From a bacterium (GTDB lineage: Bacteria > Armatimonadota > Fimbriimonadia > Fimbriimonadales > Fimbriimonadaceae), in assembly GCA_013823945.1 (NCBI GenBank), contig PNMZ01000002.1:248001-312000 (forward strand): a stretch of 64,000 nucleotides of DNA. The letters run 5' to 3'. Positions 6,792-9,832 of this stretch are shown piece after piece. Below the pieces are notes generated by a model. That model was not told the origin of the DNA. It was given only the letters and a program-made list of their open reading frames with translations, and did no database searches. The position numbers and the translations under genes are program-made. How positions within the stretch are numbered: the stretch's first letter is position 1; the number at the start of each line of letters is the position of its first letter.

Positions 6792-7046
6792 CTAAATAGA
6801 AAGTCGTATTCTTGATATTGAACCTGAACCTCTGCCGCCAGGTAAAAATGAAAATACTGTTAGTGCGAGAGCAATTGTGAATAGGCATGTCGATATCCAG
6901 TAGTGCAAAGTATAGCTTTCGAGCTTTTGGTCGTCTCTGATGTCTCTATTGAGTTCAAATTTTATCGATTGAAGCTTTTGGTTATGAACAAAGTAAAGAA
7001 CCCAGCATAGCAGTCCAGTTCCTAGAATTAGTGGCTGTACAGTCAT
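6792..7046 (-). CDS. Small two-helix membrane protein, paralogue A (unknown function)
   Basis: An 84-residue protein with a first hydrophobic helix (PLILGTGLLCWVLYFVH), a charged middle (KFELNRDIRDDQKL) and a second helix (WISTCLFTIALALTVFSFL), ending in a Gly/Arg/Ser tail. It is clearly related to the 74-residue protein at 7257-7481. Both have the same N-terminal spacing and share LYF-x-H, K-x-E-x-x-x-DI, KL-x-x-YT-[LI]-HYWIS. No characterised family is recognised. The local DNA is AT-richer than the flanks, suggesting an acquired islet. The start ATG at 7046 is preceded in frame by a stop, so the N-terminus is fixed. Confidence 0.7.
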   Translation of the reverse strand: MTVQPLILGTGLLCWVLYFVHNQKLQSIKFELNRDIRDDQKLESYTLHYWISTCLFTIALALTVFSFLPGGRGSGSISRIRLSI

Positions 7047-7055
7047 TGGGATCCA

Positions 7056-7073
7056 TTATACTTGCTGAATCAT
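7056..7073 (-). other. Five-codon leader mini-ORF before paralogue A
   Basis: On the minus strand a strong Shine-Dalgarno GGAGGTG (7079-7085) sits five bases before ATG ATT CAG CAA GTA TAA (7073-7056). The stop is in the same frame as the downstream gene, whose ATG at 7046 is only nine bases further on. The best ribosome-binding site thus serves the mini-ORF, and the small membrane protein may be translated by re-initiation. Confidence 0.35.
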
Positions 7074-7256
7074 CCTGTCACCTCCGTGTCTTTTACAATG
7101 GACAACGTTCTCGATTATGTGTTGGAATTTCGTCCTAGTATATAACAGAAGAGATGGAATTAGTCACAACTCTTTACTAAAGCATGTCGCTCCAATTCCA
7201 GGCTCAGTTCGAGTTAATATGACTATGCGGAGAGCTTTTGGCAGTTGGAACCTAGT

Positions 7257-7481
7257 CTAGTTTGTGAGTGATGGACGGCGAATGGCATACATTATCGAAA
7301 GAACTGCGAGAGCAATCAATCCTTTTGAAATCCAGTAGTGGATCGTGTAGTTGCGCAGCTTCTCTTCACTCTTAATGTCTTTGTCAACTTCGTACTTAGC
7401 GTCTTCCAGAAATTTGGTGTGCATGAAGTATAGGATCCCAAACACGACTGCAAGTCCGAGGGCAATAGCTCTGTCAATCAT
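7257..7481 (-). CDS. Small two-helix membrane protein, paralogue B (unknown function)
   Basis: A 74-residue protein with helix 1 (AIALGLAVVFGILYFMH), a charged loop (KYEVDKDIKSEEKL), YTIHYWIS, and helix 2 (GLIALAVLSIMYAI). It is homologous to the 84-residue protein at 6792-7046 over nearly its whole length, with the same 19 residues before the shared LYF position. The pair therefore arose by duplication. It lies 14 bases downstream of the next small membrane gene on the same strand, so the two are probably one transcript. Function unknown; both termini are predicted on the same membrane face. Confidence 0.7.
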   Translation of the reverse strand: MIDRAIALGLAVVFGILYFMHTKFLEDAKYEVDKDIKSEEKLRNYTIHYWISKGLIALAVLSIMYAIRRPSLTN

Positions 7482-7495
7482 TTTATGAAAGGGCC

Positions 7496-7726
7496 CTATA
7501 TTTGATGAACACCCATGGCTTTTAGATTCGAAATCACTATTCCCGCGATTGCGAGCCAGGCCAAGATGACCAGAATAGAAACACCGGAATCGATTAACTC
7601 GAATGCGTTGGAATTTTCGCTTTCCTTACGGAGCAATCTGATGCCGTACTTTATGTTGCACAGTGCGAAAAGGTTTGCAATCGCTACGACAAGCGATATC
7701 AGGAAACCAAAAAGTGAGAACTCCAT
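7496..7726 (-). CDS. Small two-helix membrane protein (unknown function)
   Basis: A 76-residue protein with two predicted membrane helices (FSLFGFLISLVVAIANLFALC and SGVSILVILAWLAIAGIVI) joined by a basic/acidic loop (YGIRLLRKESENSN). It is not obviously homologous to paralogues A and B, but has the same size and topology and lies 14 bases upstream of paralogue B. No family recognised. It could be a small subunit of a membrane complex or an immunity-type protein; nothing in the sequence decides this. Confidence 0.62.
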   Translation of the reverse strand: MEFSLFGFLISLVVAIANLFALCNIKYGIRLLRKESENSNAFELIDSGVSILVILAWLAIAGIVISNLKAMGVHQI

Positions 7727-7829
7727 GGTGATGATTTTAGCGATTTAGGCTGCTCAAATGCAAATGTGAACTCTGGAGATTCCGATATAAAGTCTTCCAG
7801 ATCCAATTAATGGGGCAAGCTCTTAGTTA

Positions 7830-7898
7830 GTGAATAACTCGAAATGGTACGCCGTTGGCGAAGTGAGCGCAGCCGGTATTGAAGTTGGGGGTGATGAT
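7830..7898 (-). pseudogene. Decayed fragment of the phosphatase C-terminus
   Basis: The minus strand reads IIT...CAHFANGVPF..., which aligns with the end of the phosphatase at 8288-9832 (IITVTP...YRAHLANGELF). On the + strand both copies share CGCCGTTGGCGA and GGGGGTGA-type blocks in the same order. It has no start and no catalytic region, so it is a remnant of a duplicated or rearranged phosphatase 3' end. The rest of 7727-7951 shows nothing else. Confidence 0.45.
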
Positions 7899-7951
7899 AT
7901 TGCAGTGCTACTTAACTTCCCCCTTTATCGGCGAAAAGTTGTGATGTCATT

Positions 7952-8235
7952 TTAATCTCTCGAACCGTACTGAGTGAAGAACCCCACGTTCACGGCTCGT
8001 ACCAGTTGTTTGTTTTGAAATAAACCGAATGCGGCGCATGCAATTACCATTAAGATTAAGAAGCCCAAAATAATCTTCTGAAAGTAGTATTTTCTGAGGA
8101 GATGCTTTGAGGACATTGCCGAATCCACAAATCCTGAATCCTTCGAGAAACGTGAGCTTAATGCGAAGTAAACAAGGATGACCCCCCACCAACAATCATA
8201 GCCAAAATTGAACTAATGAACGGGGATGCCTCCAT
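7952..8235 (-). pseudogene. Frameshifted small two-helix membrane protein
   Basis: From ATG 8235 the frame reads MEASPFISSILAMIVGGG and then stops soon after a run of six G. Shifting by one base at that G run continues as VILVYFALSSRFSKDSGF, completing a membrane helix. It then runs through a charged loop and a second helix (IILGFLILMVIACAAFGLF) to a TAA at 7954-7952. The restored product would be ~94 residues with the same two-helix plan as its neighbours. Either one G is missing (sequencing error or real mutation) or there is slippage at the homopolymer. No good Shine-Dalgarno is seen before 8235. Confidence 0.5.
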
Positions 8236-8287: not shown

Positions 8288-9832
8288 TTACTTGTCGATT
8301 GTAAAGGAGTCGAAGAGTTCGCCGTTGGCGAGGTGGGCGCGGTAGGTGATGCGGGTGGGGGTGACGGTGATGATTTGGTAAAGCTGTTTGTACTCTCCGG
8401 TTTTGGTCATGCGGGAGAGGGCGTCTTCGCCGACGTTATACATTTTGGGTCCGGAGACGGAGACGACGAAGTAGGTTTGTCCGACTTGGGCGGTGGCGCC
8501 GGTGGAGAGGTTAGTGATGTTAGGGCCTCGGAAGAGGGGTTCGAGCGGGTTTGAGACCATTGACTTTCGAGTCTGTTTGATTGCATTGTTTTGGTCTCCC
8601 CACCCCTTCCCCTCCCCATCAGGGGAGGGAGTTGACGAAGAATTGATCTGGGTGGACAACCCCTCCCTTACCCTCCCCAAACTTGGGGAGGGAACTGATT
8701 GCGAATATAGGCTTTCTGGGCGTGAGTTCTTATTCTTTTGATCTCCCCGCCCCTTCCCCTCCCCATCAGGGGAGGGAGTTGACGAAGAATTGATCTGGGT
8801 GGACAACCCCTCACTTGCCCTCCCCAAACTTGGGGAGGGAACTGACGAATGCGAATGGGGGAGAGTCATGCGGCCGTAGGAGTGGTCGTGGCCTTGGAGG
8901 ACGAGGTCGACTTTGTGTTTGAGGATGATGGGGAGCCAGAGTTCGCGGAGGGCTTTGTTGTCGCGGCCTTTAGCGGTGCTGTACATCGGGTAGTGGAAGG
9001 TGAGGATTGTCCAGTTAGCCTTGGTTGCGCTGAGGGTTTTGTCGAGCCAAGCGGCTTGCTCGGCGGTTTTTTCAAGAGAGTTGAGGCTAATGATGCGTGC
9101 GCCTTGGAAGTCGATGTAGTAGTTGGTCTCTTCCAGCCCGGGGACACCGTTGCGGGGGTATTCGAATTGGGGAGTCCAGAGGCGGGTGATTTTTCCAGAT
9201 TTGTATTCGTGGTTGCCGGGGGTGGCGACGGAGGGGATGGTGCTGTGGAGCCAGCCGCCAGCATAGAACCACTCGCCCCATTCTTTGTCGGCTTCGGGGA
9301 TGTTGATCAGGTCTCCGGCATGGAGCATGAAATCGGCGTAGGGGGCGTCTTTTTGGGCTTGGCGGATGACGCGGCTCCACATGGATTTGATGTTGTTTTG
9401 GGCGTCGCCGAAATAGATGAAGGTGAATGGGTCATCCATTACGGACGCGGTGGTGAAATCGAACCATTCGGACCACGATTGACCATCGCCGACGCGGTAG
9501 CTGTATTTGGTTTTGGGTTTTAGTCCTTTGAGGGTGGCGGTGTGGTAGTAGGCGGTTGGGCCTTCGGCGAGTTCAAGGGGTTGGGAAGTGGCGTTTTGAG
9601 TGGTGGCGGTTGAAGTGAATCTTGGGTCGCCGGATGAAGGGGCAAATTGGATGAGGGCTTGGGCGACGGGAGCATCGGTTCGCCAGGTGAATGCGGCTTG
9701 GGTGGCGGGGTTTCCGTTCCAGGTGTAGATCACTCTTTGGGGTTCGGTGGTTGCTTGGGTTTGTTTTGTGGCGACGAATGCGGCACTGGCGAGGGAGAGA
9801 GCGGCAACGGTAATTGGGAAAAGTGGTTTCAC
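8288..9832 (-). CDS. Purple-acid-phosphatase-like metallophosphoesterase with repeat insert
   Basis: A 514-residue exported phosphoesterase. A signal peptide (residues 1-~27) is followed by a fibronectin-III-like N-terminal domain typical of purple acid phosphatases, ending near WFDFTT (~127). The metallophosphatase core has the expected ligands: FGD (141-143), GDL (173-175), GNHEY (206-210), FHYP (279-282) and GHDHSYGR (314-321). After GHDH comes an aberrant ~100-residue low-complexity segment (about 327-426) made of two 35-residue copies of VPSPSLGR...GDQ encoded by a DNA repeat. The C-terminal core (TYFVVSVSGPKMY) then resumes. The insert sits in a loop and keeps frame, so the enzyme may still fold. 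Substrate is unknown, probably phosphomonoesters outside the membrane. Confidence 0.88.
   Translation of the reverse strand: MKPLFPITVAALSLASAAFVATKQTQATTEPQRVIYTWNGNPATQAAFTWRTDAPVAQALIQFAPSSGDPRFTSTATTQNATSQPLELAEGPTAYYHTATLKGLKPKTKYSYRVGDGQSWSEWFDFTTASVMDDPFTFIYFGDAQNNIKSMWSRVIRQAQKDAPYADFMLHAGDLINIPEADKEWGEWFYAGGWLHSTIPSVATPGNHEYKSGKITRLWTPQFEYPRNGVPGLEETNYYIDFQGARIISLNSLEKTAEQAAWLDKTLSATKANWTILTFHYPMYSTAKGRDNKALRELWLPIILKHKVDLVLQGHDHSYGRMTLPHSHSSVPSPSLGRASEGLSTQINSSSTPSPDGEGKGRGDQKNKNSRPESLYSQSVPSPSLGRVREGLSTQINSSSTPSPDGEGKGWGDQNNAIKQTRKSMVSNPLEPLFRGPNITNLSTGATAQVGQTYFVVSVSGPKMYNVGEDALSRMTKTGEYKQLYQIITVTPTRITYRAHLANGELFDSFTIDK
8595..8698. repeat. 104-bp palindromic repeat, unit 1, inside the phosphatase gene
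   Basis: Contains two hairpins: CCCTCCCC-ATC-AGGGGAGGG-like and CCCTCCCC-AAACTT-GGGGAGGG. The same 104-bp unit occurs 147 bases further on (8742-8845) with about three differences. The exact 147-base spacing (49 codons) keeps the reading frame. Translated on the minus strand it gives SPSLGR and SPDGEGKG motifs. Confidence 0.85.
8742..8845. repeat. 104-bp palindromic repeat, unit 2, inside the phosphatase gene
   Basis: Near-identical to unit 1. The separating 43 bases differ from the unit and encode an ordinary polar linker (KNSRPESLYSQS). A truncated relative lies at 26344-26364. This looks like a mobile palindromic element that inserts in coding sequence without breaking frame. Confidence 0.85.

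What the first reader, a model, noticed from the sequence alone, without database searches (positions are those of the whole stretch)
6792..8235. AT-richer islet of small two-helix membrane proteins
Four consecutive minus-strand reading frames encode 74-94-residue proteins with two membrane helices. Two are clear paralogues sharing a YT-[LI]-HYWIS motif. None resembles a known family. The cluster lies between groEL and a phosphatase and differs in base composition from both flanks, suggesting acquisition. Size and multiplicity recall small membrane effectors or immunity proteins.
Basis: partly seen in the sequence, partly recalled or inferred. Interest (0 to 1): 0.6.

Follow-up and report, generated by a model that had tools for sequence, protein, structure and literature searches.

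The report
Genus-restricted small two-helix membrane proteins
Next to the groEL gene of a little-known freshwater bacterium lies a short cluster of genes for tiny two-helix membrane proteins; three are real genes kept by selection, known only from this genus and matching no named family, while the fourth is out of frame here and very different in the sister species.

Summary
The observation largely holds. Three intact minus-strand genes (84, 74 and 76 aa) encode predicted two-helix hairpins; ORF1 and ORF2 are paralogues (34% identity). ORF1-3 evolve under purifying selection (dN/dS 0.09-0.21, dS about 0.3-0.4), so they are real proteins. Three such frames on one strand never appeared in 300 shuffles, nor elsewhere in 200 kb of this genome. 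They match no Pfam, NCBIfam, PADLOC or PDB entry and are confined to two species (ORF1/2) or three (ORF3) of one genus. The foreign-composition argument is weak: only ORF1 has odd third-position GC. ORF4 is strongly diverged between sister species and is bracketed by a decayed copy of the phosphatase 3' end, which suggests local cassette exchange. I tested whether groEL's 3' side is a defence hotspot; a control site (ispG) carried defence-type genes too, so no enrichment is shown. Function remains inferred: accessory inner-membrane hairpins, possibly conflict-related (immunity or phage exclusion). Modest interest.

The parts
6792..7046 (-). ORF1, 84 aa, two-helix membrane protein; paralogue of ORF2; GC3 0.32
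   Evidence: (dN/dS 0.145)
7047..7060 (-). candidate leaderless -10 element TATAAT, 8 nt before the ORF1 ATG; conserved in G006
   Evidence: pattern only, not mapped
7257..7481 (-). ORF2, 74 aa, two-helix membrane protein; AlphaFold hairpin, mean pLDDT 83.8
   Evidence: (dN/dS 0.095)
7496..7726 (-). ORF3, 76 aa, two-helix membrane protein; 14 nt upstream of ORF2; relative in G005; AlphaFold hairpin, mean pLDDT 83.8
   Evidence: (dN/dS 0.205)
7727..7739 (-). candidate leaderless -10 element TAAAAT, 7 nt before the ORF3 ATG (CAAAAT in G006)
   Evidence: pattern only
7830..7894 (-). decayed copy of the phosphatase 3' end (cf. 8301-8364); absent in G006
   Evidence: (score 27, shuffle maximum 14)
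7952..8235 (-). ORF4, frame-disrupted relative of the 94-aa gene of G006; the conserved part is the C-terminal tail

Best explanation
A cluster of genus-restricted accessory genes for small helical-hairpin inner-membrane proteins. Shown: ORF1-3 are real, selected genes; ORF1 and ORF2 are paralogues; ORF4 differs between sister species far more than its neighbours, and a fragment of the phosphatase 3' end flanks it, as expected if this end of the cluster is exchanged by recombination. Inferred: ORF1 and the ORF3-ORF2 pair are transcribed from leaderless promoters; the proteins sit in the cytoplasmic membrane as hairpins, perhaps as oligomers, with a charged loop of about 23-29 residues, and act by binding or blocking another membrane component. 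My preferred role is conflict-type: self-protection against a membrane-acting agent, or exclusion of phage entry. That last step is a guess from size, multiplicity and allele turnover.
For: Purifying selection on ORF1-3. Two-helix frames beyond chance and unique in 200 kb. Confined to one genus: 2 genomes for ORF1/2 and 3 for ORF3 of 291 in the phylum search. ORF4 about 33% identical between species while its neighbours are 82-95% identical. Phosphatase remnant flanking ORF4, absent in G006. Helical hairpins predicted. The G005 relative of ORF3 has a weak match to phrog_23420, a phage moron membrane protein (E 1.5e-4).
Against: No neighbouring toxin, bacteriocin or defence gene in the window; the window's own ORF3 does not match phrog_23420; no relatives in phage, plasmid or viral searches; the defence-hotspot idea failed its control; ORF1 and ORF2 are constrained rather than fast-evolving, which suits a fixed partner as well.
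Confidence: 0.3

Rival explanations
1. Lineage-specific accessory subunits or regulators of a housekeeping membrane complex (transporter, respiratory or envelope-stress component), with no role in conflict; like many small membrane proteins they modulate a larger partner.
For: Strong constraint on ORF1/2 (dN/dS 0.145 and 0.095); conserved place beside groEL in two species; intergenic sequence between ORF1 and ORF2 also well conserved.
Against: Absent from the other six genomes of the genus for ORF1/2, so not needed for a core complex; ORF4 turnover.
Confidence: 0.35
2. Recently born or relic orphan membrane proteins: AT-rich intergenic DNA tends to encode hydrophobic segments, and these hairpins may give small, generic membrane effects without a specific partner.
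For: No relatives outside the genus; AT-rich span; literature precedent for membrane proteins emerging from thymine-rich sequence (PMC7005711, listed, abstract only).
Against: Paralogy and clear purifying selection; ORF3 has a 33%-identical relative in G005, so it is not very recent.
Confidence: 0.15
3. Holin-like or hydrophobic toxins left from a mobile element, which permeabilise the membrane when expressed.
For: Size and two helices.
Against: No lysis, phage or recombinase gene in the cluster; no PHROG match for the window's proteins at a meaningful E-value; three members kept under selection.
Confidence: 0.07
4. Not genes: chance open frames in AT-rich DNA.
For: Short ORFs, no database matches.
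Against: 0 of 300 shuffles give even two such frames on one strand; synonymous bias with p 3.9e-6 for ORF1 and 4.8e-6 for ORF2.
Confidence: 0.03

Closest known systems
Lineage-restricted small membrane proteins (ORFans) of bacteria in general
   Same: Short, hydrophobic, AT-rich, no homologues outside the lineage, under selection
   Different: Clustered as several members, two of them paralogues, with one strongly diverged allele between sister species
Small immunity or superinfection-exclusion membrane proteins (for example those of phages and bacteriocin producers)
   Same: Size, two helices, allele diversity at one member
   Different: No sequence match; no cognate toxin or prophage beside them; function untested
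phrog_23420 (moron, membrane protein)
   Same: The G005 relative of ORF3 matches over 56 residues, E 1.5e-4
   Different: The window's own ORF3 does not match it; hydrophobic segments inflate such scores
Two-helix holins
   Same: Size and helix number
   Different: No lysis module; no sequence match; topology undecided

Membership tests
Immunity or superinfection-exclusion membrane proteins | Sequence similarity to a known member | tested here: not met
   Pfam, NCBIfam, PADLOC and PHROG scans of the window's proteins gave no significant match
Immunity or superinfection-exclusion membrane proteins | Cognate toxin, bacteriocin or prophage in the neighbourhood | tested here: not met
   Neighbours are groES/groEL, phosphatase, DUF1552 and DUF1592-type genes; no peptide conserved in both species stood out in the gaps
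Immunity or superinfection-exclusion membrane proteins | Protection phenotype | not testable with these tools
   Needs expression or deletion experiments
Two-helix holins | Lysis-module context or holin family match | tested here: not met
   No PHROG or Pfam holin match; no lysis genes nearby
Two-helix holins | Lethal membrane permeabilisation | not testable with these tools
   Needs expression in a laboratory strain
Anti-phage defence genes in a hotspot at groEL 3' side | Enrichment of defence genes at the site over a control site | tested here: inconclusive
   A few PADLOC-matching proteins at 24 groEL sites, and several at 30 ispG control sites
Lineage-restricted small membrane proteins (ORFans) | Real coding under selection, no homologues outside the lineage | tested here: met

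The most novel reading that the evidence does not exclude
A new type of exchangeable small-membrane-protein cassette: several co-selected hairpin proteins with one allele-swapping member, acting together as a minimal membrane-level immunity or exclusion system in Armatimonadota.
Probability: 0.07. Interest if true: 0.7.

Novelty: new member of a known kind. Interest (0 to 1): 0.28.

Why it matters
If the genes have a shared role, they would be a compact, testable set of small membrane proteins in a poorly studied phylum, with one member apparently exchanged between sister species. Otherwise they add a few undescribed genus-level families to the large pool of small orphan membrane proteins.

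Tried and rejected
1. Defence hotspot at the groEL 3' side: relatives carry a Drt6/Drt4-like reverse transcriptase (G001), DUF2971 plus serine recombinase plus OLD-like ATPase (G004), Cas9 (G008) and a PDC-S34 match (G085), but the control ispG 3' site in 30 genomes also gave OLD/Gabija-like, reverse-transcriptase and other PADLOC matches; no enrichment shown. 2. Other small hydrophobic frames beside groEL in G007 and G003: unrelated in sequence and without clear homologues in 85 genomes, so they cannot be shown to be genes and were not used as evidence. 3. Structure: hairpins predicted, but Foldseek gave no significant match in PDB or viral models. 4. Rfam: nothing. 5. Viral, phage, plasmid and genome scans: no relatives except the sister genome. 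6. Antisense 77-aa frame opposite ORF3 also shows some bias (dN/dS 0.31), but ORF3 is the strand with a homologue in G005. 7. ORF1-4 as one superfamily: profile comparisons not significant.

Full report
What is there. The window lies in a 3.16 Mb genome (G000, 19 contigs). Its closest relative in the collection, G006, corresponds by position and contig length to Armatimonadetes bacterium Uphvl-Ar1, CP021423, a Microcystis-associated genome placed in the Fimbriimonadaceae (PMC5629041). Between groEL and a purple acid phosphatase-type gene are three intact minus-strand ORFs of 84, 74 and 76 codons, each with two hydrophobic segments. ORF1 and ORF2 are 34% identical and share the YT[LI]HYWIS motif. 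Profile comparison does not link ORF3 or ORF4 to them or to each other.

The fourth frame. G006 has an intact 94-aa gene there. The two versions are about 33% identical, with the C-terminal tail QLVR[AS]VNVGFF[TS]QY best kept, and synonymous change is saturated, whereas ORF1-3 are 82-95% identical between the species. Whether the frame change is biological or an assembly error cannot be told from one sequence.

Are they genes? Against G006, dN/dS is 0.145, 0.095 and 0.205 for ORF1-3 with dS 0.28-0.42, comparable with the dS of groEL (0.30) and the CAP-like gene (0.50) nearby. Fisher tests give 3.9e-6 for ORF1 and 4.8e-6 for ORF2. In 300 Markov shuffles of the span, never more than one such two-helix frame lay on a strand, and no other place in 200 kb of the genome has two or more within 1.6 kb. 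ORF1 has TATAAT and ORF3 TAAAAT 7-8 nt before the ATG; TANNNT just upstream of start codons is enriched among local genes, which suggests leaderless transcription. This is a pattern, not a mapped promoter, and the generic promoter scan found no excess.

Distribution. The ORF1/2 profile finds only G000 and G006 among 85 family genomes (the weak other rows have E 0.05-0.1) and among 291 phylum genomes. ORF3 has one further relative, in G005, about 3.3 kb downstream of groEL and likewise convergent with it. No relatives were found in the genome contigs beyond the sister genome, in viral contigs, or in the phage and plasmid searches made. No significant Pfam, NCBIfam, PADLOC or PDB match was found. 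The only lead is a weak PHROG match of the G005 relative to a moron membrane protein.

Composition and history. The span is 42.4% GC, lower than nearly all 1.4-kb stretches in 200 kb. Split by codon position, ORF2, ORF3 and ORF4 have ordinary GC3, so their low GC comes from positions 1 and 2, which reflect amino-acid content; only ORF1 (GC3 0.32) stands out. The ORF1-3 block predates the split of the two sister species. A 65-bp remnant of the phosphatase 3' end lies at 7830-7894, on the far side of ORF4 from the phosphatase, and is not detectable in G006. This fits insertion or replacement of ORF4 by recombination at the phosphatase end.

Is the site a defence hotspot? In relatives, groEL is followed by different genes, among them a Drt6/Drt4-like reverse transcriptase, Cas9 and a DUF2971-recombinase-ATPase group. 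I ran the same extraction for ispG as a control. The groEL side gave PADLOC matches at a few of 24 sites and the ispG side also gave several at 30 sites (the tool counts families, not sites, so exact rates are not available). I therefore do not claim a hotspot, and guilt by association adds little.

How it may work. AlphaFold models of ORF2 and ORF3 are helical hairpins (mean pLDDT 84 from very shallow alignments) with no significant structural neighbour. Charge counts leave the topology open: the loop carries the most charged residues, but the ORF1/2 tails have the higher net positive charge. The likeliest classes are accessory partners of a membrane complex or conflict-type proteins. Clustering, narrow distribution and ORF4 turnover lean toward the latter; the strong constraint on ORF1/2 leans toward the former, and the two are close in weight.

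Verdict. A real, undescribed, genus-restricted cluster of small two-helix membrane proteins.

Noticed in passing
window 8585-8845: Two 114-nt direct repeats (96% alike), each with the palindrome CCCTCCCCAAACTTGGGGAGGG, lie in frame inside the phosphatase ORF; G006 has one copy of the palindrome there. They look like REP-type elements inserted in a coding region.
   Followed up: partly
G000:C2:160001-360000 (L072-L081): TANNNT lies 6 nt before the first ATG in 10% of 154 long ORFs against about 1% at most other spacings, and SD-like motifs occur in only 19%: leaderless transcription may be common in this genus.
   Followed up: partly
L111:2025-3227: The N-terminal part of a Cas9 gene begins about 290 nt downstream of groEL in genome G008.
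   Followed up: no
L071:6868-8670: A Drt6/Drt4-like reverse transcriptase (PADLOC E 4e-122) ends the intergenic gap directly downstream of groEL in genome G001.
   Followed up: no
L069:2603-8578: Downstream of groEL in genome G004: a DUF2971 protein, a large serine recombinase and an OLD/AriA-like ATPase, which look like a mobile defence-type segment.
   Followed up: no
G000:C2:194001-196500 (in L073): The only other stretch in the 200 kb examined that is as AT-rich as the islet; not examined.
   Followed up: no
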